Assembly: GCF_010550675.1 (NCBI RefSeq) | Contig: NZ_JAAGOA010000001.1 | Span: 124,001-188,000 of the forward strand | Length of the DNA stretch: 64,000 bases | Source of the DNA: Phytoactinopolyspora halotolerans | GTDB lineage: Bacteria; Actinomycetota; Actinomycetes; Jiangellales; Jiangellaceae | Direction of reading: 5' to 3' | Part shown: positions 15,879 to 27,117 of the stretch, one piece after another | How positions within the stretch are numbered: the first letter of the stretch is position 1 | How the letters are laid out: every line of letters starts with the position of its first letter | Made by a program: the position numbers and the translations under genes | Notes under the pieces: model-generated | Databases searched by the model: none | Told to the model about the DNA's origin: nothing | Seen by the model: only the letters and a program-made list of their open reading frames with translations

Positions 15879-16916
15879 ATGGCGCTTACCCTGCACGTCG
15901 ACGCGGCCCGCTGGCGCCAGCACCTGAAGCGCTACGCGGAGCCGGAAGGGACCACGATCGTCCCGGTGGCCAAGGGCAACGGCTACGGATTCGGCAACGC
16001 CACCCTGGCCGCGGAAACGGCTGCGCTCGGAGCCGGCACGCTCGCGGTCGGCACGTATGAAGAGATCGCCGACGTCCGCCCGGATTTCTCCGGCGATCTG
16101 CTGGTGCTCTCACCGTGGCGGCCATGGCTGGACGTGCCCACCGACGACGAACAGGTCATCCACACGGTCTCCCGCGTCGAGGATCTGCGCGCGCTGGCCG
16201 AACGCAGCGATCGGCCGCGCGTCGTCGTGGAGGTCCTGACCAGCATGCGCCGCCACGGCGTCGGCGTGGAGCAGCTCGGCGAGATCGTGGGAGCGGTGGA
16301 CCGTGTCCGGTTCGAGGGGATCGCGCTGCACCTGCCGCTGAACGGTAGCCAGGCCGATCAGGCGCGGCGGCTGGGCACTTTGGCGCTGGACGCCATGCCC
16401 AGCTCGGCCGCCCGTACGCTCTGGGTCAGCCACCTCACCCCTCAGGCCGCGTCCGCCCTGGGGCGAGAGATCAACGCCGAGGTCAGACTGCGCGTCGGAT
16501 CGGCCTTGTGGCTGGGCGACCGGGGTGCGCTGAGTGCGCGCGGCACCGTCCTGGACCTGCACCGGGTGCAGCGCGGAGATCGCTACGGCTACCGGCAACG
16601 GGGCGCGCGACGCAACGGCTGGCTGGTGGTGGTCGGTGGTGGGACCGCACACGGCGTCGCGCTCGAGGCACCGTCGCCGATCACCAGTCTCCGCCAGCGG
16701 CTCGTCACGGCCGCCAAGGGCGGTCTGGAAGCGACCGGCCGCGCCCTCTCCCCCTTCCGCATGGCCGGCAAGCAACGCTGGTTCGCCGAACCGCCGCACA
16801 TGCAATGCTCGATGATCTGGCTCCCGGATGACCTCACACCGCCGTCCCCGGGTGATGAGCTCGATGTGGAGGTCCGCTTCACCACCACGAACTTCGACCG
16901 GATCAGCTGGGAGTAG
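15879..16916 (+). CDS. Alanine-racemase-like fold-type III PLP enzyme
   Basis: This is a 345-residue protein. The PLP-binding motif VPVAKGNGYGFG (Lys near residue 31) and the (beta/alpha)8-barrel pattern place it with the alanine racemase N-terminal domain. The C-terminal domain is shorter and diverged compared with classical Alr (about 370-390 residues). GDRYGYRQR is the likely counterpart of the segment carrying the catalytic Tyr. Genes of this type sit beside femX in related actinobacteria. It may make D-alanine, or be a specialised racemase or partner in bridge synthesis; activity is not assured. A short GC-rich hairpin at 16921-16936 separates it from the convergent Lrp gene. Confidence 0.7.
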   Translation: MALTLHVDAARWRQHLKRYAEPEGTTIVPVAKGNGYGFGNATLAAETAALGAGTLAVGTYEEIADVRPDFSGDLLVLSPWRPWLDVPTDDEQVIHTVSRVEDLRALAERSDRPRVVVEVLTSMRRHGVGVEQLGEIVGAVDRVRFEGIALHLPLNGSQADQARRLGTLALDAMPSSAARTLWVSHLTPQAASALGREINAEVRLRVGSALWLGDRGALSARGTVLDLHRVQRGDRYGYRQRGARRNGWLVVVGGGTAHGVALEAPSPITSLRQRLVTAAKGGLEATGRALSPFRMAGKQRWFAEPPHMQCSMIWLPDDLTPPSPGDELDVEVRFTTTNFDRISWE

Positions 16917-16944
16917 GCGTAGGCCGGGGAGGGCCTCGCTCCAC

Positions 16945-17967
16945 TCAGCCGATCCGCAGCGGCACGGTGCGCACGTACCGTTGCGAGTCGTCGAAGACGT
17001 GTCCCATGAGCTTCATCGTCCGCAGCACCAGAACGCGATCCTTGACCGTCAAGCTCGGCAGCTCCCGATTCAGCCGCTCCTCCACCCGGAACAGGTCGGC
17101 CGCGGAGCGCAACCAGACCGAGAGCTGCGCATTGGACGAGCCGGCCAGGGCGGTGATCAGGCGCAATTCCGGAACCCGGTCGCCGAGCCGCTGCTGGGCC
17201 GCGCTCAGTTCCCGCGGATCCACCATGCCGCGGAGAAACGCCGCGCTCGGCAGCCCCAGCCGTGGCCGGGCGACGTCACACCGCAACCGGATCACGCCAT
17301 CCCGCAGCAGTCGCCGCAACCGGCGCGCCACGGCCGGTGCGCTGAGGCCGACGGCGGCGCCCAACTCCTGCTGGCTCGCCCGGCCGTTCATGCAGAGCTT
17401 GGCGATGATCTGCTGATCGACCTCGGTACGCGGCCGCCGCCCCGCGGACACGGTGCCCCCGATCGCATTCAGCTCCCGTAGCCGCGCCTGCTGGTCCGCG
17501 GTCAACGCGCGCGCGTGCCACCGATGCGTCTCGAACAGCAGGTCGGGCACGATGTGCACGGCGTATTCGAGGATCCCCGGAATACCACCCAGCCGGGTCA
17601 ACAGGTAGTCCGGAAGCCGTGGCCCGCCGCTCAGCACGATCATCAGCTGTGCGGACCCGGCCGTGTGGTGGATGCTGAGCACTTCGGGATGGTCGGTGAG
17701 AATCCGGGCGACCTCGGTGACCGCCCCGTTGGCACATCTGAGGTCGACATACGCCGAGAGCAGCTCGGTGACCGTGTGCCGGCCGGGCACCACCGTGATG
17801 CGAGCGACGCCGTCGTCCAGCAACCGTTGCCACCGCCTGGCCAGGGTCGTCGGTTCCGCGTTGAGGACATGCCCCAGATCGGTCCAGGACACCCGGGGAG
17901 CCAGCTGGAGCGCGTTCGTGATCTCCAGGTCAAGTTCACCGATGACGTTCGAATCCTGCATTCTCAT
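16945..17967 (-). CDS. Two-domain Lrp/AsnC family transcriptional regulator
   Basis: This regulator of about 340 residues is roughly twice the usual Lrp length and consists of two consecutive HTH plus RAM-like units. HTH 1 is near residues 14-50 (LAPRVSWTDLGHVLNAEPTT) and HTH 2 near 183-225 (GRASQQELGAAVGLSAPAVA). Lrp proteins sense amino acids or small metabolites. It is divergent from the AbgT transporter gene across about 120 bases, which suggests it controls the transporter-amidohydrolase pair. Three in-frame starts are possible: GTG 17973, ATG 17967 and ATG 17961. ATG 17967 has the best-placed GAAG ribosome site. Confidence 0.85.
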   Translation of the reverse strand: MRMQDSNVIGELDLEITNALQLAPRVSWTDLGHVLNAEPTTLARRWQRLLDDGVARITVVPGRHTVTELLSAYVDLRCANGAVTEVARILTDHPEVLSIHHTAGSAQLMIVLSGGPRLPDYLLTRLGGIPGILEYAVHIVPDLLFETHRWHARALTADQQARLRELNAIGGTVSAGRRPRTEVDQQIIAKLCMNGRASQQELGAAVGLSAPAVARRLRRLLRDGVIRLRCDVARPRLGLPSAAFLRGMVDPRELSAAQQRLGDRVPELRLITALAGSSNAQLSVWLRSAADLFRVEERLNRELPSLTVKDRVLVLRTMKLMGHVFDDSQRYVRTVPLRIG

Positions 17968-18088
17968 CCGCACTTCTGGCGATTCTCAGCGTCAGCGCCT
18001 CGAATATACACGCCGTCCGTAGGGTCGCCGTTCAACGCCAGCCGGCTCTCACCGCGCCGGCACGCCACAGCTGCGAAAGAGGTGACCA

Positions 18089-19795
18089 ATGACCACGGAA
18101 GCACCTCCGACGGCCACGACTCCGGGCCGGGGCGCACGGCTGCTCGACGGCATCGAGCGGGTCGGAAATCGGCTCCCCGATCCGTTCTCACTGTTCCTCC
18201 TGCTCTTCGGCGTCGTCGCCGTGGCATCGAGCATCATGGCCGCACTCGATCTGGTCGTCGAGGTTCCCGACGCCGAGGAGCCCACGCCCATCAGAGGGTT
18301 CTTCACCGCGGACGGCTTCACCTGGCTGACCACCAATCTGGTCGACAACTTCATCGGGTTCCCGCCCCTCGGGGTCGTGCTGACCATCCTGCTCGCCGTC
18401 GGCGTGGCGCAGCGGACCGGACTTCTCGCGGCGATGGTGCGACGGGCGTTCGGGCGTGCACCGCGATGGGCGCTGCCGTACGTGGTCGGTGTCATCTCGG
18501 TCGCCGGGAACATCATGAGCGACGCGGCCATGGTGGCACTGCCGCCGCTCGCGGCGATGGTCTTCGCCGCGGCCGGCCGGCATCCGGTGGCCGGGCTGCT
18601 CGGCTCGTTCGCCGCCGTCACCGCCGGCTACAGCTGCAGCCCGTTCATCACCAGCGCCGACGCGCTGCTCAGCGGCATCACCACATCGGCAGCCGAGTCA
18701 CTCGGCAATCCCGGTACCGCCGTCACTCCGGTATCGAACTACTTCCTGATGGCCACCATCGCCCTCCTCCTCGGCGCCGTCACCGGCTTCCTGATCGATC
18801 GAGTCCTGGAGCCGTCGCTCATACGTAAGCAGGTGCCCAGAACGACGACGGCCGACAACCCGGAGAGTGCCGCCGCTCCAGCGGACGGCCGCGGCCACCG
18901 GAACCGGAACGGCGATCGGGAATGGAATGACGACCGGGACCGGGACGACCGCGACAACGATCACGACGACACCGGCAACGGGAACGACGCCGCTGCGCTG
19001 TCCGACGGGTCCGATCTCGGCCACACCGAACTCACCGACGACGAGCGGAGCGGCCTGCGCTGGGCCGGGGTCGCCTTCCTGGCGACCGCATTCGGCGTGC
19101 TGGCGTTGACCCTGCCCTCCGGGGCACCGATGCGGGCCGAGGACGGCAGCTTCCTGCCCTCCTCACCGCTCCTCGATTCGGTGGTCTTTCTCGTCTTCTT
19201 ATCCCTGATTGTGCCGGCGATCGTCTACGGCATCCGGGTGCGCACCGTGCGGGGAGGTTCGAGCCTGGCGACCATGATGACCGGCGCCGTCAAGGACATG
19301 TCCGGATTCGTGGTGGTGGCGTTCGTGATGGCGCAGTTCCTCGCACTGTTCAACTGGAGCGGGCTCTCGTCGTGGCTAGCCGTCACCGGCGCCGACCTTC
19401 TGCAGCGCGCGCACTTCACCGGGTTCGGCGCGATCGTCGCCTTCGTCCTGCTCGCGGCGGTCATCAACGTCTTCGTGATCTCCGGCTCGGCGCAGTGGGC
19501 GCTGTTCGCCGCCGTGTTCGTCCCGATGTTCGCGCTGCTCGGCTACGAACCCGGCTTCATTCAGGCGGCGTTCCGGATCGGCGACTCGTCGACCAACGGC
19601 CTCAGCCCGTTGAACCCGTACATGGTGATCATCCTCGGGTTCTTGCGCGCCTACGAGCCGCGAGCCGGCCTCGGTACAGTCATCTCCCGAGCGCTCCCGT
19701 TCAGCCTCGTGTTCCTGATCCTGTGGATCGCCGTCCTGGCGGTGTTCTTCGTCACCGGCACGCCGGTAGGCCCGGGAATGGGTATCCACCTGTGA
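18089..19795 (+). CDS. AbgT family transporter (p-aminobenzoyl-glutamate / antimetabolite type)
   Basis: This is a 568-residue polytopic protein. AbgT members import p-aminobenzoyl-glutamate or export sulfonamides. Signature regions are LPDPFSLFLLLFGVV in helix 1, GNIMSDAAMVALPPLAAMVF and TAGYSCSPFITSADALLSGI in the first half, and SGSAQWALFAAVFVPMF plus STNGLSPLNPYMVIILGFL in the second. A cytoplasmic linker around residues 265-300 is a striking Asp/Asn/Arg/Gly low-complexity tract. ATG 18089 has a GAGGTGA ribosome site. The amidohydrolase gene follows after 37 bases, so they are probably one operon. Confidence 0.88.
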   Translation: MTTEAPPTATTPGRGARLLDGIERVGNRLPDPFSLFLLLFGVVAVASSIMAALDLVVEVPDAEEPTPIRGFFTADGFTWLTTNLVDNFIGFPPLGVVLTILLAVGVAQRTGLLAAMVRRAFGRAPRWALPYVVGVISVAGNIMSDAAMVALPPLAAMVFAAAGRHPVAGLLGSFAAVTAGYSCSPFITSADALLSGITTSAAESLGNPGTAVTPVSNYFLMATIALLLGAVTGFLIDRVLEPSLIRKQVPRTTTADNPESAAAPADGRGHRNRNGDREWNDDRDRDDRDNDHDDTGNGNDAAALSDGSDLGHTELTDDERSGLRWAGVAFLATAFGVLALTLPSGAPMRAEDGSFLPSSPLLDSVVFLVFLSLIVPAIVYGIRVRTVRGGSSLATMMTGAVKDMSGFVVVAFVMAQFLALFNWSGLSSWLAVTGADLLQRAHFTGFGAIVAFVLLAAVINVFVISGSAQWALFAAVFVPMFALLGYEPGFIQAAFRIGDSSTNGLSPLNPYMVIILGFLRAYEPRAGLGTVISRALPFSLVFLILWIAVLAVFFVTGTPVGPGMGIHL

Positions 19796-19832
19796 GCTCC
19801 AGCATGATTCGTCGACGTCGAAGAGAGAGCTG

Positions 19833-21098
19833 ATGACCGGCAACGTCTCTGCCATCACCACCCCGACCGCATACGTGCACGCCCGTCTCATCGACGGCAC
19901 CGGGCAGTCCCCGATCGACGATGCGACGGTGGTCGTCGAGGACGACACCATTACCTACGCCGGACCCGCACCCGGTGCGCCGGAGCTCCCACCGGCCCAC
20001 CGCATGGTCGACCTGGCGGGGCGGACGCTGCTGCCCGGGTTCATCGACAGCCACGTGCACCTCGGGTACCAGGACGCGTCGAAGCTGGTGCTGAACAACC
20101 TCGACATCCATCGGAGCCTGTGGGCATTCGAGGTGGCCGAGCGTGCCCAGCGCACCCTCGACGCCGGCGTCACCAGCGTTCGTGACCTCGGCGGCCTGGA
20201 CGCGGGCTTCCGTTCCGCGCAGGCGCGCGGCCTGCTGCGGGCTCCCCGGCTACAGGTGGCCGTGCGGATCATGAGCCACACCGGAGGACATGCGGACTTC
20301 CGGCTGCCCACCGGCGTGAACCTGCACGAACTCCCCGGATCCGCGGCGGAGATCGTGGACACCGTCGCCGAAGCACGCATCGGTGCTCGCCGGCTGATGC
20401 GGGACGGCGCCGACGTCATCAAGGTCTGCGCCACCGGCGGCGTTTCCAGTCCCTCCGACACGCCGGACGACGAGGGCCTCACCGTGGAGGAGATCGCGGC
20501 GATCGCCGACGAGGCGGGCCGGCACGGCGGTCGTCCCGTTGCCGCCCACGCGCAGGGTGCGGCCGGCATCCGCAACGCGGTACGCGGCGGCGTCTCCAGC
20601 ATCGAGCACGGATACCTGGTGGACGATCAGGGAATCGACCTGATGCTGGAGCGTGGTACGTACCTGGTGCCGACGCTCTCCACGTTCGTCGGATACCACG
20701 AACGCAAGCATCTGCTGCCGATCGAGGCCTACAACGCCAAGCGAGCGATGGAGGAGCGGGCGTTCGCGTGCGTCTCGGAGGCGATCCGCCGCGGCGTACG
20801 AGTGGCCATGGGAACGGATGCGGGGATCTCCGTCCACGGCACCAACCTCACTGAGCTGGCACAACTGGTGGAGGTGGGCATGACACCGATGGCCGCGATC
20901 AGCGCCGGCACGTTGCACGCTGCCACCCTGCTCGGAGTCGCGGATCGGCTCGGCACGGTCCAAGCCGGGATGCTGGCCGACCTGGTCGCGTGCGATGGCG
21001 ATCCGCTTCAGGACATCGGTGTGCTCGCCGATCCGGCCAACGTCGCACTCGTGGTGCAGAACGGTCAGGTGGTCAAGGGCGCGTTGGGAGCGCCATAA
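19833..21098 (+). CDS. Metal-dependent amidohydrolase, imidodipeptidase/prolidase-like
   Basis: This 421-residue amidohydrolase-superfamily enzyme has a binuclear-metal barrel. Ligands visible in order are HxH in FIDSHVHLG, the bridging Lys in DVIKVCATGG, His in VAAHAQG, His in SIEHGY, and Asp in MGTDAG. This set is typical of the subfamily that includes Xaa-Arg/Lys and Xaa-Pro dipeptidases. Combined with the upstream AbgT transporter, it probably hydrolyses the imported aminoacyl or p-aminobenzoyl-glutamate conjugate; the substrate is an inference. No signal peptide is seen. Confidence 0.85.
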   Translation: MTGNVSAITTPTAYVHARLIDGTGQSPIDDATVVVEDDTITYAGPAPGAPELPPAHRMVDLAGRTLLPGFIDSHVHLGYQDASKLVLNNLDIHRSLWAFEVAERAQRTLDAGVTSVRDLGGLDAGFRSAQARGLLRAPRLQVAVRIMSHTGGHADFRLPTGVNLHELPGSAAEIVDTVAEARIGARRLMRDGADVIKVCATGGVSSPSDTPDDEGLTVEEIAAIADEAGRHGGRPVAAHAQGAAGIRNAVRGGVSSIEHGYLVDDQGIDLMLERGTYLVPTLSTFVGYHERKHLLPIEAYNAKRAMEERAFACVSEAIRRGVRVAMGTDAGISVHGTNLTELAQLVEVGMTPMAAISAGTLHAATLLGVADRLGTVQAGMLADLVACDGDPLQDIGVLADPANVALVVQNGQVVKGALGAP

Positions 21099-21443
21099 CC
21101 GCGGTACGCCGAACTGCGTGGTTCGGTCCGACGTCATCCGGGTACAACAGGTACAACCGTGCAGATCCCGCAGGAACAGCGGAGGTGTAGTCGATGCTCC
21201 GGAGCCGGTCGGAGTCGACGCCGCCGAACCGGTCGGAGTCGATACCGTGGTGGACGCCGGTTGAGCGTTCACAGCCGGCGCGGAACTCCGCGCGGCCGCG
21301 GGACGTCTCGTGAGAAGAAGGTCACGCAATGACGCGGGCCACCGGCAAGCGGATCTTTAAGCGAATTCACAGCCACCGCACAGACACGGTTAACGAGGGG
21401 ACGCGATGATTGTCCGTGACGTCCTGGATAAGGGAGAGGCACG
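21099..21443. other. Intergenic stretch with a 24-bp tandem repeat; no firm gene
   Basis: About 345 bases. Two near-identical 24-bp units centred on CCGGTCGGAGTCGA lie at about 21199-21246. A 26-codon frame at 21329-21409 begins with ATG behind GAGAAGAAGG and encodes a basic peptide (MTRATGKRIFKRIHSHRTDT...). It is too short to support by content alone. The region must also hold the promoter of the following gene. Confidence 0.4.
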
Positions 21444-21923
21444 ATGACACATGCGGACCTGCCGCAGTTCGACCCGATCAAGGCTGCCTGGAACACCGTG
21501 GCGACCTATTCGAACTACGACGAGGCGCAGGACGCGGTGAACCGGCTCAACGCCGAGGGATTTCCGATCGAGCATCTGGACATCATCGGTTCCGATCTCA
21601 GGCTCGTCGAACGTGTCACCGGACCGGCGAACAAGCTGCGCGCGGCCGCGAACGGAGCGTTCAGCGGAGCAGGCATGGGCGCGGTGCTCGGCCTGGTGAT
21701 GGGGTTGTTCTCGCCCGGATTCACCTGGTTGGCGATGACGGTTGTGGGAGCCGTCATCGGGACGATCTGGGGCGCCGGGTTCGGCTTCGCCGCGCATGCG
21801 TTCGGCGGCGGCCGGAAGACCTTCACCTCGACGCGTGGTCTGGTCGCCACGCACTACGACCTCGTGGCCCGCGGTGGTCGCACGGAGCAAGCCCGTATCC
21901 TGCTCGCCGGCACCAACCCCTAA
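21444..21923 (+). CDS. General stress protein 17M-like (YflT domain) membrane protein
   Basis: This is a 159-residue protein. The N-terminal YflT-like alpha/beta domain (AVNRLNAEGFPIEHLDIIGSD) is followed by a Gly/Ala-rich hydrophobic hairpin (AFSGAGMGAVLGLVMGLFS and VVGAVIGTIWGAGFGFAAHA). A short C-terminal beta segment then repeats the domain edge. Members are general-stress proteins of unknown biochemistry in Bacillus and actinobacteria. The start ATG 21444 has a GGGAGAGG ribosome site. It is convergent with the glycosyltransferase pair, 24 bases away. Confidence 0.75.
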   Translation: MTHADLPQFDPIKAAWNTVATYSNYDEAQDAVNRLNAEGFPIEHLDIIGSDLRLVERVTGPANKLRAAANGAFSGAGMGAVLGLVMGLFSPGFTWLAMTVVGAVIGTIWGAGFGFAAHAFGGGRKTFTSTRGLVATHYDLVARGGRTEQARILLAGTNP

Positions 21924-24612: not shown

Positions 24613-27117
24613 TCAGTTCCACCCCTCGTCGCCGCCCTCGTCGCCGTCGTCACCGCCACCGTCGTTGCCGTTCTGATTGCCGTTCGGGCTGCCGTCGCCA
24701 CCGTCCGTGCCGTCATCACCGGACTCGTCGCCACCGTCGTCGCCGGACTCGTCACCGCCCCACGGACCGCCGTCGTCACCGGACTCATCGCCGCCGTCCG
24801 TACCGTCGCCACCGTCGTCGCCGGACTCGTCACCGCCCCACGGACCGCCGTCGTCACCGGACTCATCGCCACCGTCCGTACCGTCACCGCCGTCACCGCT
24901 GTCCCCGCCGTCGCCGCCGTCGTCACCGGACTCGTCGCCACCGTCCGTACCGTCGCCGCCGTCGTCACCGGACTCGTCGCCGTTCTGGTTACCGTTGGCG
25001 TTGCCGTTGTCACCGTTGCCGGTCTCATCACCGTGGTCGGGATCTGGGCGACGGGTGGGCTCGGGGATGTCCGGAGACGGGGTCTCGGTCGGCTCCGGCT
25101 CCTCCGGGTCGGTGCGCTCGGGGAACTCGATGACCTCCTCCCCGTCCAACGCGGCCTTCATGAACGCCGTCCAGACCCGGGCGGGATAACCGCCGGCGCG
25201 GAATTTCTCCTGCCCCCCGACGCCGTCGAGCGACTTGGTTCCCGCGGTCTCTCCTTCACCGTTGATGAACGACACCGCGGTAGCCAGCTGGGGCGTGAAG
25301 CCGGCGTACCAGGCGGTGAGATCCTCATGTGTCCCGGTCTTGCCGGCGGACGGGCGGTCCAGCTCCTGCGCCGCCTTCCCGGTGCCGTTGTCGCCCTCCA
25401 CCACCTGCGTCATCGCGTACGTCACGTCCGCCACGACGTCCGGTTCGAAGACCATCTTCGGCTCCGGATCGACCGAGTGCAGCACGTTGCCGCCCCGGTC
25501 GGTCACCTTGCTCACCGTGTACCAGTCGGTGTGCCGGCCGCCAGCGGCCAGCGTCGCGTAGGTCTCCGCCAGCTCGACGGTCGACGCCTTGGCCTGACCG
25601 AGCGTGACCCGCGGGTTGGCTTCCAGATCCTGCGCGTCCTCCGGGAACCCGGCGCGGACCATCGCGTCGACCACCTTGGCGGGTCCCATCTGCATGGCGA
25701 GATCGACGAACGCCGTGTTGATCGACCGTTCCATGGACTGCAGAAGATCGACTTCCTCACCGTAGTCGGCATCGCCCAGGTTTCTCACCGGCGGGCCGAG
25801 CTCCGGGTCGTCGAACGGTGTGTCCCCCCAGAACTCGCTCTCCAGCGTCGCTCCGTCCTCCAGCGCGGCCGCCAGCGTGAACGGCTTCGCCGTCGATCCC
25901 ACCTGCTGCTTTCCGTCCAGGGCGTCGTTGAAGGGATGCTCCACCGCGTCCGGGCCGCCGTACATAGCCACGACGGCGCCGTCGCCGGGTCGCACCGCGG
26001 CCAGGCCGATGCGCACCTCGTCGGCGTTCTCCGTCGGGCGTTCCTCTTCAACGGCCTTGACCGCCGCCTCCTGGGCCTCCTTGTCGAACGTGGTGACAAT
26101 CCGCAACCCGCCGTTCCGGATCTCCGCCTCGTCCAGGCCGGCCGCGAGCAGCTCCTCCTCCACCTGCTGCATCAGGTAACCGTTCGGACCGGAGTACCTG
26201 TTGGTCCGCTGCTCGGGAAGCACCTCCGGCAATTCGGTCTCGGCCGCGGTCTGTGCGTCCAGCGCGCCGATCGCCGTCATGCCGTCCAATACGTACTGGA
26301 AACGCTGCGCGAAGCGCTCCTCGTTGCCCTCGATCGTGGGGTCGTAGCGGTGCGGTGAACGGAGGATGGAGGCGAGAGCGGCGCCCTCGGCCACGCTCAG
26401 CTCACTGACCGGCTTGCCGAAGTAGGACTTCGAGGCCGTCTGCACCCCGTAGAGGTCGCGGCCGAACCAGATCGTGTTGAGGTACGAGGCGAGAATGTCG
26501 TCCTTCTCGCGTTGCTGGTCGATCTTGATCGAGACGAACAGCTCGTTGAGCTTCCGGCTCCAGGTCTGGTCCTGGGTCAGGTAGTAGTTCTTCACGTACT
26601 GCTGGGTGATCGTCGAGCCGCCACCCGAGATCGAGCCGCCTTCGCGCACGAAGTTCAGGCCGGCGCGGGCAATGCCCGCCGGGTCGAAACCGCTGTTGCT
26701 GTAGAAGCTGCGGTCCTCCGCGGCGATCACCGCGTCCCGCACGTGCTGCGGGATCTGCGACAGGTCCACGCTCTCCCGGTTGTACTCGCTGAACCGCCCG
26801 AGCTCGGTCTCCCCGTCACTCCAGTAGACGATGGTCGCCTCGGAACGCGCGAAGTCGTTCGGCCTCGGAATGTCGGTCATCGCGTAGACGATCCCGATGC
26901 CGAGCACGCCCAGGAACATGAAGCCGAGGAAGTAGAGGGCGAGCGCCTTGATGCCCAGGAACTTACGCCAGCGCGACTTGCTCCGGCCGCCGCCCTTGGC
27001 ACGAGCGCCCTTACCGCGCTGTCCGTTGCCGCTGGCCGCATAGCGTCGCCGTGCCTCGGCACGGCCGCCTTGGGGTCTGTGTCCTTCGGGTGCCACTGTC
27101 TCTTCGGTGCCTCGCAT
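24613..27117 (-). CDS. Bifunctional penicillin-binding protein (class A PBP)
   Basis: This is an 834-residue class A PBP: a basic cytoplasmic tail, one membrane helix (about 56-78), and a GT51 transglycosylase with EDRSFYSNSGFDP and GGSTITQQYVKN. The transpeptidase domain has all three motifs: Ser-x-x-Lys in GSTAKPFTL, SxN in SINTAF, and GKTGTHED. After about residue 690 the protein becomes a Glu/Pro then Asp/Gly/Ser-rich acidic tail of roughly 140 residues, encoded by tandem repeats at 24730-24885. Such tails are known for actinobacterial PBPs, but this one is extreme. It polymerises and cross-links peptidoglycan outside the membrane. Confidence 0.93.
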   Translation of the reverse strand: MRGTEETVAPEGHRPQGGRAEARRRYAASGNGQRGKGARAKGGGRSKSRWRKFLGIKALALYFLGFMFLGVLGIGIVYAMTDIPRPNDFARSEATIVYWSDGETELGRFSEYNRESVDLSQIPQHVRDAVIAAEDRSFYSNSGFDPAGIARAGLNFVREGGSISGGGSTITQQYVKNYYLTQDQTWSRKLNELFVSIKIDQQREKDDILASYLNTIWFGRDLYGVQTASKSYFGKPVSELSVAEGAALASILRSPHRYDPTIEGNEERFAQRFQYVLDGMTAIGALDAQTAAETELPEVLPEQRTNRYSGPNGYLMQQVEEELLAAGLDEAEIRNGGLRIVTTFDKEAQEAAVKAVEEERPTENADEVRIGLAAVRPGDGAVVAMYGGPDAVEHPFNDALDGKQQVGSTAKPFTLAAALEDGATLESEFWGDTPFDDPELGPPVRNLGDADYGEEVDLLQSMERSINTAFVDLAMQMGPAKVVDAMVRAGFPEDAQDLEANPRVTLGQAKASTVELAETYATLAAGGRHTDWYTVSKVTDRGGNVLHSVDPEPKMVFEPDVVADVTYAMTQVVEGDNGTGKAAQELDRPSAGKTGTHEDLTAWYAGFTPQLATAVSFINGEGETAGTKSLDGVGGQEKFRAGGYPARVWTAFMKAALDGEEVIEFPERTDPEEPEPTETPSPDIPEPTRRPDPDHGDETGNGDNGNANGNQNGDESGDDGGDGTDGGDESGDDGGDGGDSGDGGDGTDGGDESGDDGGPWGGDESGDDGGDGTDGGDESGDDGGPWGGDESGDDGGDESGDDGTDGGDGSPNGNQNGNDGGGDDGDEGGDEGWN
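24730..24885. repeat. Two 78-bp tandem repeats in the PBP acidic tail
   Basis: Two units (24730-24807 and 24808-24885) differ by about one base. Each encodes a 26-residue Gly/Asp/Glu/Ser block containing GGPWGGDES. Shorter degenerate GDESGDDGG units flank them over about 24640-25010. Slippage or unequal recombination would change tail length between strains. Confidence 0.85.

What the first reader, a model, noticed from the sequence alone, without database searches (positions are those of the whole stretch)
16945..21098. Lrp-AbgT-amidohydrolase: a self-contained uptake and hydrolysis module
A double-length Lrp regulator diverges from an AbgT transporter that is followed 37 bases later by an imidodipeptidase-like amidohydrolase. 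In Escherichia coli AbgT works with the peptidase AbgA/AbgB on p-aminobenzoyl-glutamate. Here a non-homologous hydrolase takes that place, which hints at a different conjugated amino acid or dipeptide substrate.
Basis: partly seen in the sequence, partly recalled or inferred. Interest (0 to 1): 0.5.

Follow-up and report, generated by a model that had tools for sequence, protein, structure and literature searches.

The report
Lrp-AbgT-amidohydrolase gene trio
Three neighbouring genes in a soil-type bacterium look like a small portable kit (a sensor, a membrane transporter and a cutting enzyme) for using some amino-acid conjugate; related bacteria carry the same kit, or pair the same transporter family with an unrelated cutting enzyme, but the actual compound is still unknown.

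Summary
At 16945-17961(-) lies a double-length Lrp/AsnC regulator, at 18089-19795(+) an AbgT transporter, and 37 bases later, at 19833-21098(+), a COG1228 (imidodipeptidase/ochratoxinase-type) amidohydrolase. The host is most likely a Phytoactinopolyspora; three of five genomes of the genus carry the trio. The same three families recur together in Nocardiopsis, Streptomonospora and Streptomyces (chromosome and plasmid), in several unrelated surroundings, with one or two hydrolases. Among the best 80 AbgT loci found, the Lrp occurs in 10 and the hydrolase in 9, all in the window's AbgT clade; the other 70 have neither, and 62 of them carry an M20 peptidase. Prauserella halophila keeps the Lrp and AbgT of this clade but has an M20 enzyme: most simply a natural partner swap. 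Another AbgT clade pairs a different double-length Lrp with a CPG2-like M20 peptidase. The substrate stays open: the metal site is intact and the nearest solved fold is an Arg/Lys carboxypeptidase, but a presumed carboxylate-contact His is Gln, and no activity was tested. Direction of transport and regulation are inferred.

The parts
16945..17961 (-). double-length Lrp/AsnC regulator (ORF extends to a GTG at 17973; homology favours the ATG at 17961)
   Evidence: two HTH_AsnC stretches; relatives beside AbgT in 10 of 80 loci
17962..18088 (.). divergent intergenic region (127 bp), presumed control region; no convincing shared operator found
18089..19795 (+). AbgT-family transporter; D191, W470, P488, R496 align to residues 180, 400, 418, 426 of 4r0c
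   Evidence: positions counted on the printed alignment; that 4r0c is YdaH and that these residues are functional is recalled
19833..21098 (+). COG1228 amidohydrolase (imidodipeptidase/ochratoxinase type) with complete binuclear metal site H74, H76, K197, H239, H259, D329
16917..21443 (.). segment between the alanine-racemase-like gene (ends 16916) and the 159-aa gene (starts 21444); in two congeners without the module these two genes are neighbours, the 159-aa gene being in the opposite orientation

Best explanation
A probably horizontally acquired catabolic/salvage module. AbgT imports an amide-linked amino-acid conjugate (an N-acyl amino acid or a dipeptide-like compound), the binuclear-metal amidohydrolase cuts the amide bond inside the cell as a carboxypeptidase-type enzyme (C-terminal amino acid released), and the divergent double-length Lrp senses the released amino acid or the conjugate and switches the two-gene operon. 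Shown: gene content, conservation, presence/absence at one site, family membership, intact metal site. Inferred: inward transport, coupling inside the cell, co-transcription, amino-acid sensing, and the substrate class; the exact substrate is not known.
For: Trio in 14 distinct loci: window, G018, G020, L013-L020 (8), L124, and Streptomyces L007 and L122. Between the three host families no other gene family was shared by the crude gene caller, and within Nocardiopsaceae-type genomes there are three different flank sets. In 2 of 5 genus genomes the neighbours lie together without the module. In the 70 AbgT loci outside the clade, 62 have an M20 hydrolase within 2.5 kb, so AbgT plus amide hydrolase is the rule there. 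Prauserella halophila L012: Lrp and AbgT of this clade with an M20 enzyme; on 44 rows the AU test rejects the hydrolase-linked AbgTs as one clade without it (p 0.00087) and not with it (p 0.345) (groups chosen after a first tree was seen). Recurrence: 5 of 39 other AbgT places have a divergent double Lrp plus CPG2-like M20, with Lrps not in one clade with those here (AU p 3.7e-8, 22 rows against 11). An adjacent gene was scanned at 9 of 10 loci of double Lrps without AbgT (two genes at one locus): M19 dipeptidase (2), oligopeptide ABC ATPase, family-5 and family-1 solute-binding proteins (1, 2), MFS plus M81 peptidase, amidase, and one SUKH protein. Hydrolase model (mean pLDDT 89.8) closest to Cc2672 Arg/Lys carboxypeptidase 3mtw (VIA Z 54.5, rmsd 1.8 over 396), then prolidase 3n2c, Arg carboxypeptidase 3be7, ADH3 (Z 49-53). 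E. coli AbgT imports PABA-Glu (PMC5082436, PMC6002978; passages).
Against: Three Nocardiopsis-type genomes carry an orthologue of the hydrolase without AbgT or Lrp beside it (L125-L127), so the enzyme can serve alone. Two of five genus genomes lack the module. L149 has a related Lrp and an AbgT without a recognised hydrolase in operon, and 11 of 39 AbgT places and 8 of 70 loci have no recognised partner. NCBIfam names AbgT members 'antimetabolite efflux' (TIGR00819). No operator stood out from shuffles at two of three word lengths. AbgT of the Streptomyces loci is distant (42-43%) although Lrp and hydrolase go with it, so that may be a second assembly.
Confidence: 0.66

Rival explanations
1. 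It is a p-aminobenzoyl-glutamate salvage locus after all: AbgT imports PABA-Glu and the amidohydrolase replaces PGH as a glutamate-releasing enzyme.
For: AbgT of E. coli imports PABA-Glu (PMC6002978, PMC5082436, passages); a different AbgT clade pairs with M20 enzymes that match glutamate carboxypeptidase models below cut-off.
Against: No folate or PABA gene in the conserved set; characterised relatives are reported to prefer C-terminal Arg/Lys, Pro or hydrophobic residues, and AnOTA did not act on C-terminal polar or charged residues (PMC11342369 passages); the PABA-Glu transporter model scores far below cut-off (NF008459, 374.1 of 864 bits).
Confidence: 0.12
2. Detoxification/efflux unit: AbgT exports an antimetabolite or the product, and the hydrolase inactivates an amide toxin (as ADH3 does with ochratoxin A).
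For: NCBIfam TIGR00819 describes AbgT members as antimetabolite efflux pumps (score below its cut-off); residues shared with the solved AbgT chains; by sequence the hydrolase is as close to ADH3 as to Cc2672 (1.3e-66 and 1.8e-66); present on a plasmid.
Against: Recognised partners across actinomycete AbgT clades are mostly peptidases, which fits nutrient use better; Lrp regulators usually answer to amino acids (established knowledge).
Confidence: 0.15
3. The hydrolase serves a broader cytoplasmic role (dipeptide or peptidoglycan-peptide turnover) and its position beside AbgT is incidental.
For: Orthologues without AbgT/Lrp beside them in 3 genomes (L125-L127) and 13 weaker relatives without AbgT in the fetched stretch.
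Against: Adjacency in 14 loci, two gene orders, several neighbourhoods.
Confidence: 0.07

Closest known systems
E. coli abgR-abgA-abgB-abgT (PABA-Glu utilisation)
   Same: AbgT-family transporter, divergent regulator, amide hydrolase in the same unit
   Different: Regulator is LysR-type, hydrolase is two M20 subunits; here Lrp and one amidohydrolase-superfamily enzyme
Cc2672 L-Arg/Lys carboxypeptidase and the COG1228 group (Sgx9359b, Sgx9355e, Sgx9260c, ADH3, A. niger ochratoxinase)
   Same: Fold and all six metal-site residues
   Different: Gln241 where ADH3 and Cc2672 have the second His of HxH, which I equate by motif with AnOTA His289, a docked carboxylate contact; P-D/T/E-D-E-G loop after K197 in the downstream and Streptomyces copies; about 31-38% identity; activity unknown
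Actinomycete AbgT plus PM20D2/HmrA-like M20 pairs (Brevibacterium, Arthrobacter, Nocardioides, Corynebacterium and others)
   Same: AbgT 47-54% identical, hydrolase nearby
   Different: M20 hydrolase, no double Lrp in these 62 loci
Second AbgT clade, mostly Nocardiopsaceae-type genomes, with double Lrp and CPG2-like M20
   Same: Divergent double Lrp, AbgT, hydrolase directly behind
   Different: Distant AbgT (36-41% to the better of two queries), Lrps not in one clade with those here, M20 hydrolase

Membership tests
AbgT transporter family (PF03806) | match over the curated cut-off | tested here: met
   470.8 bits against 27
AbgT transporter family (PF03806) | conserved D/W/P/R residues of the solved chains (functional role recalled) | tested here: met
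   D191, W470, P488, R496 align to 180, 400, 418, 426 of 4r0c
AbgT transporter family (PF03806) | transport of a conjugate, and its direction | not testable with these tools
   needs transport assay
NCBIfam p-aminobenzoyl-glutamate transporter (NF008459) / TIGR00819 efflux subfamily | score over curated cut-off | tested here: not met
   374.1 of 864; 425.7 of 753.55 bits
Amidohydrolase superfamily subtype I, COG1228 imidodipeptidase group | HxH, carboxylated Lys, His, His, Asp metal ligands | tested here: met
   H74, H76, K197, H239, H259, D329; ligand list from PMC11342369 passages; carboxylation itself not testable
Amidohydrolase superfamily subtype I, COG1228 imidodipeptidase group | fold | tested here: met
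   3mtw Z 54.5, rmsd 1.8 over 396; the first seven entries Z 51.1-54.5
NCBIfam Xaa-Pro dipeptidase (NF051886) | score over curated cut-off | tested here: not met
   309.1 of 500 bits
Cc2672/AnOTA-type carboxypeptidase | HxH carboxylate contact (AnOTA His287/His289) | tested here: not met
   second position is Gln in all 20 AbgT-linked rows, Gln in 11, Ile in 5 and unresolved in 1 of 17 lone rows; ADH3 and Cc2672 have His. Equation with AnOTA numbering is by motif
Cc2672/AnOTA-type carboxypeptidase | hydrolysis of a C-terminal amino acid amide | not testable with these tools
   needs enzyme assay
E. coli-type abg operon | M20 AbgA/AbgB hydrolase and LysR regulator | tested here: not met
   Pfam of the window genes; in L010 only Lrp, AbgT and hydrolase are hit, no M20 or LysR
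Lrp/AsnC regulators | AsnC-type HTH and RAM ligand domain | tested here: met
   HTH_AsnC 70.9 bits, two stretches; AsnC_trans_reg 28.9 bits against 25
Lrp/AsnC regulators | second ligand-binding half in the double-length form | tested here: inconclusive
   one stretch in the window protein, two in the Streptomyces homologue

The most novel reading that the evidence does not exclude
AbgT is not a folate-salvage or drug-efflux family in actinomycetes but a general importer of amide (or ester) conjugates whose specificity is read out by an exchangeable, clade-specific intracellular hydrolase (COG1228, PM20D2-like M20, CPG2-like M20, M17, esterase), and double-length Lrps have repeatedly been recruited as the matching sensors; the partner enzyme then predicts the transporter's substrate.
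Probability: 0.35. Interest if true: 0.6.

Novelty: new variant of a known kind. Interest (0 to 1): 0.42.

Why it matters
AbgT members are described both as importers (E. coli, PMC5082436) and as antimetabolite efflux pumps (NCBIfam TIGR00819). A set of AbgT clades with different attached hydrolases, including one apparent swap within a clade (Prauserella), gives a natural experiment: assay the hydrolases and the substrate range of the transporter follows. It also suggests a job for double-length Lrps as local switches of uptake-and-hydrolysis units.

Tried and rejected
Substrate from sequence: rejected as undecidable. The nearest fold is the Arg/Lys carboxypeptidase, and the two M20 partners that I searched (L012, L021) are nearest to 'Xaa-Arg dipeptidase' 7yh4 (9.1e-72 and 1.3e-54; that this is PM20D2 is recalled), which would suggest basic dipeptides; but Cc2672's stretch SMDIYN is VPTLST here and VPTFYA in ADH3, ADH3 scores as well by sequence, and Gln241 changes the presumed carboxylate site.

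Shared operator motif in 12 intergenic regions: the best 10- and 12-mers do not exceed 8 first-order Markov resamplings; the best 9-mer does (8 regions against 5-6), but relatedness of the regions can explain that. No sigma-70-type promoter hit, three terminator-like hits of low specificity, none in the 37-base gap; no Rfam hit over 16800-21500.

One clade of all AbgT-linked double Lrps: rejected (AU p 3.7e-8). One clade of hydrolase-linked AbgTs without Prauserella: rejected. A conserved extra gene of the module: none between host families (the gene caller missed or mis-framed some known genes, such as the L007 Lrp).

Literature (open-licence library only): AbgT with amidohydrolase 0 papers; 'AbgT family' with Lrp and peptidase 0; AbgT with AsnC 0; at least two of five double/tandem/fused-Lrp phrases 0, a narrow search; AbgT with actinobacteria, peptidase and transporter 1, on a two-component system by its listing. 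AbgT with p-aminobenzoyl-glutamate gave 50 papers, 20 listed, of which I read passages of two. The primary papers on Cc2672 and relatives are not held.

Rows dropped: trees of hydrolases leave out the 236-aa fragment at L006:12489; the Lrp tree leaves out an 81-aa L014 fragment; the AU test used 44 of the 85 actinomycete AbgT rows; the structure alignment has 29 of the 37 hydrolases of the tree.

Full report
OBSERVATION. The Lrp ORF runs 16945-17973 on the minus strand from a GTG, but the congeneric homologues begin at MQDSNV, which is the ATG at 17961. AbgT is 18089-19795(+), the hydrolase 19833-21098(+), with 37 bases between. Pfam and NCBIfam give Lrp/AsnC, ABG_transport and Amidohydro_1. 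The NCBIfam cut-offs of the best AbgT models and of the Xaa-Pro dipeptidase model are missed, so only family-level names are safe. The window lies in a 7.3-Mb genome. G018, of the same genus, has the contig length and place of Phytoactinopolyspora endophytica EGI 60009, so the host is most likely a Phytoactinopolyspora.

PRESENCE AND ABSENCE. Of 22 genomes searched in the family (the order search returned the same 22), 3 carry a close AbgT (E at most 1e-40), all in the window's genus (3 of 5), and all three have Lrp and hydrolase with it. In the two congeners without it, G017 and G019, the matches to the alanine-racemase-like gene and to the 159-aa gene that flank the module in the window lie 79 and 73 bases apart, but with the 159-aa gene turned round relative to the window. 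G020 has that same turned order: racemase, 159-aa gene, then hydrolase, AbgT, Lrp, then the glycosyltransferase-like gene; the window and G018 have racemase, Lrp, AbgT, hydrolase, 159-aa gene, glycosyltransferase. The simplest reading is one insertion beside the 159-aa gene followed by an inversion of module plus 159-aa gene in the line of the window and G018; loss in G017 and G019 is not excluded. In four other family genomes examined by stretch (G021, G012, G005, G001) there is no module at this place, and in three of them the racemase-like and glycosyltransferase-like genes are neighbours. Within the genus dN/dS is 0.11-0.14 for hydrolase and AbgT and 0.17-0.26 for Lrp, with dS about 0.8-1.2.

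CO-OCCURRENCE. The best 80 of 417 confirmed AbgT loci in genome contigs were scanned with window and E. coli proteins (flanks up to 6 kb, shorter at contig ends). Lrp: 10 of 80 (L011-L020). COG1228 hydrolase: 9 of 80 (L011, L013-L020), in 6 of them two copies, as Lrp, hydrolase 1, AbgT, hydrolase 2. L012, Prauserella halophila, has the Lrp and AbgT but an M20 enzyme. The other 70 have no double Lrp and no such hydrolase; 62 of 70 have an M20 gene like those of L012 and L021 within 2.5 kb and 8 have no recognised partner (L077 also has a short ordinary Lrp frame at 34 bits). Adding G020, G329 (L124), G213 (L122), the S. scopuliridis plasmid NZ_CP109093 (L007; order Lrp, hydrolase, AbgT) and the window gives 14 distinct loci with all three. 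Two further S. scopuliridis plasmids show the same 50.1% hydrolase match (their surroundings were not viewed). A Streptomyces plasmid hydrolase at 52.5% (L006) has no AbgT in its 13-kb stretch. Between the three host families no other gene family was shared; within Nocardiopsaceae-type genomes there are three flank sets (L013/L015; L014/L016/L017/L020; L018/L019/L124), one of which spans Nocardiopsis and Streptomonospora.

In 393 genomes drawn from the class, the hydrolase profile finds 25 genomes at 1e-90 and 10 at 1e-160; of those 10, 7 have AbgT and Lrp beside it and 3 (G282, G337, G196) do not; those three hold only more distant AbgTs elsewhere. In 13 stretches around weaker matches none has AbgT (L128-L140). 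The AbgT profile finds 47 places in 36 of the 393 genomes; a Pfam search of 396 genomes of the phylum at 1e-60 found 9, so the family is not common. Of the 47, 7 are the trio; of the 40 others I fetched 39 (not G383:C1:45240). Best-matching partners within 2.5 kb of those 39 (only partner types that I had queries for can be seen): PM20D2-like M20 8 (one, L154, also with a double Lrp 1 kb downstream); CPG2-like M20 8, of which 5 with a divergent double Lrp; AbgA-like M20 1; M17 aminopeptidase 3; esterase-like gene 6 (its NCBIfam PHA-depolymerase match is below cut-off); Lrp alone 2 (L141 at a contig end; L149, whose 28-bit hydrolase-like hit on the opposite strand I do not count); none recognised 11.

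HISTORY. In the AbgT trees the trio's AbgTs (without Streptomyces) and Prauserella form one supported clade of 13. Without E. coli, and on 44 rows, holding all 14 hydrolase-linked AbgTs together without Prauserella is rejected (p 0.00087), with Prauserella not (p 0.345); the groups were named after seeing the tree, so the p-values are generous. Prauserella's exact place inside the clade is weakly supported (72/48), but the branch that joins it to all members except L015 is 99/97. So the hydrolase was most simply exchanged within a line that kept its Lrp and AbgT; the direction is not settled. In the hydrolase tree the copies downstream of AbgT form one clade (100/99) that includes the window and the three lone copies L125-L127, the Streptomyces copies with L006 are next to it, and the upstream Nocardiopsis copies are a separate paralogue (the programme warns of long branches there). 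The Lrps of the CPG2-type loci are not in one clade with the Lrps here (p 3.7e-8, 22 rows against 11), so the arrangement was probably assembled more than once, given only 11 comparison Lrps. At 9 of 10 loci of double Lrps without AbgT I scanned an adjacent gene (two at L180): M19 dipeptidase twice, an oligopeptide ABC ATPase, a family-5 solute-binding protein, two family-1 binding proteins, an MFS plus M81 pair, an amidase, and once an unrelated SUKH protein (L187 not scanned).

ENZYME. The model (mean pLDDT 89.8) is closest to Cc2672 (3mtw), then prolidase 3feq/3n2c, 9kov, 3mkv, Arg carboxypeptidase 3be7, 2qs8 and ADH3, with small differences in Z. The six metal ligands listed for A. niger ochratoxinase (PMC11342369, passages) are present. 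Of the carboxylate contacts named there from docking, I equate by motif His191 with H153 and His287 with H239, both kept, and His289 with Gln241. Gln is found in all 20 AbgT-linked rows but also in 11 of 17 lone rows, so it marks the wider group, not the module. Hence an amide hydrolase of the carboxypeptidase type is the best guess, with a specificity not covered by the solved relatives.

TRANSPORTER. AbgT matches the two solved chains 4r1i and 4r0c at 1.8e-91 and 2.6e-79 (I recall them as MtrF and YdaH), and four residues that I recall as functional are conserved. Import is inferred from E. coli AbgT (PMC6002978 and PMC5082436, passages) and from the hydrolase partner, which I take to be cytoplasmic (no signal-peptide test was run); export cannot be excluded.

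VERDICT. A real, conserved gene module with signs of mobility, a new variant of the known AbgT-plus-hydrolase arrangement. The wider pattern of exchangeable hydrolases and repeatedly recruited double Lrps is the more interesting part. I found no paper on AbgT with amidohydrolase or AsnC regulators in the held open-licence library.

Noticed in passing
18870-19030: The window's AbgT has a highly charged Asn/Asp/Arg-rich loop insert (about residues 262-305) that the AbgTs of its two congeners lack.
   Followed up: partly
L142, L143, L148, L151, L152: Second AbgT clade: divergent double Lrp, AbgT, CPG2-like M20 peptidase.
   Followed up: partly
L166, L167, L168 and L153, L158-L162: AbgT next to an M17 leucyl-aminopeptidase-like gene (3 loci) or an esterase-like gene (6 loci).
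   Followed up: no
L012:4720-8839: Prauserella halophila has the Lrp and AbgT of this clade with an M20 peptidase in place of the amidohydrolase.
   Followed up: yes
L014:7632-9065: The downstream hydrolase of Nocardiopsis eucommiae reads out of frame in its C-terminal part (assembly error or decay).
   Followed up: no
   Followed up: no
L009:5107-9858: In congener G020 the trio plus the 159-aa gene is inverted relative to the window's order.
   Followed up: partly
24613-27117: A penicillin-binding-protein-like ORF with a long Gly/Asp-rich repetitive C-terminal tail (named from reading the translation, not searched).
   Followed up: no
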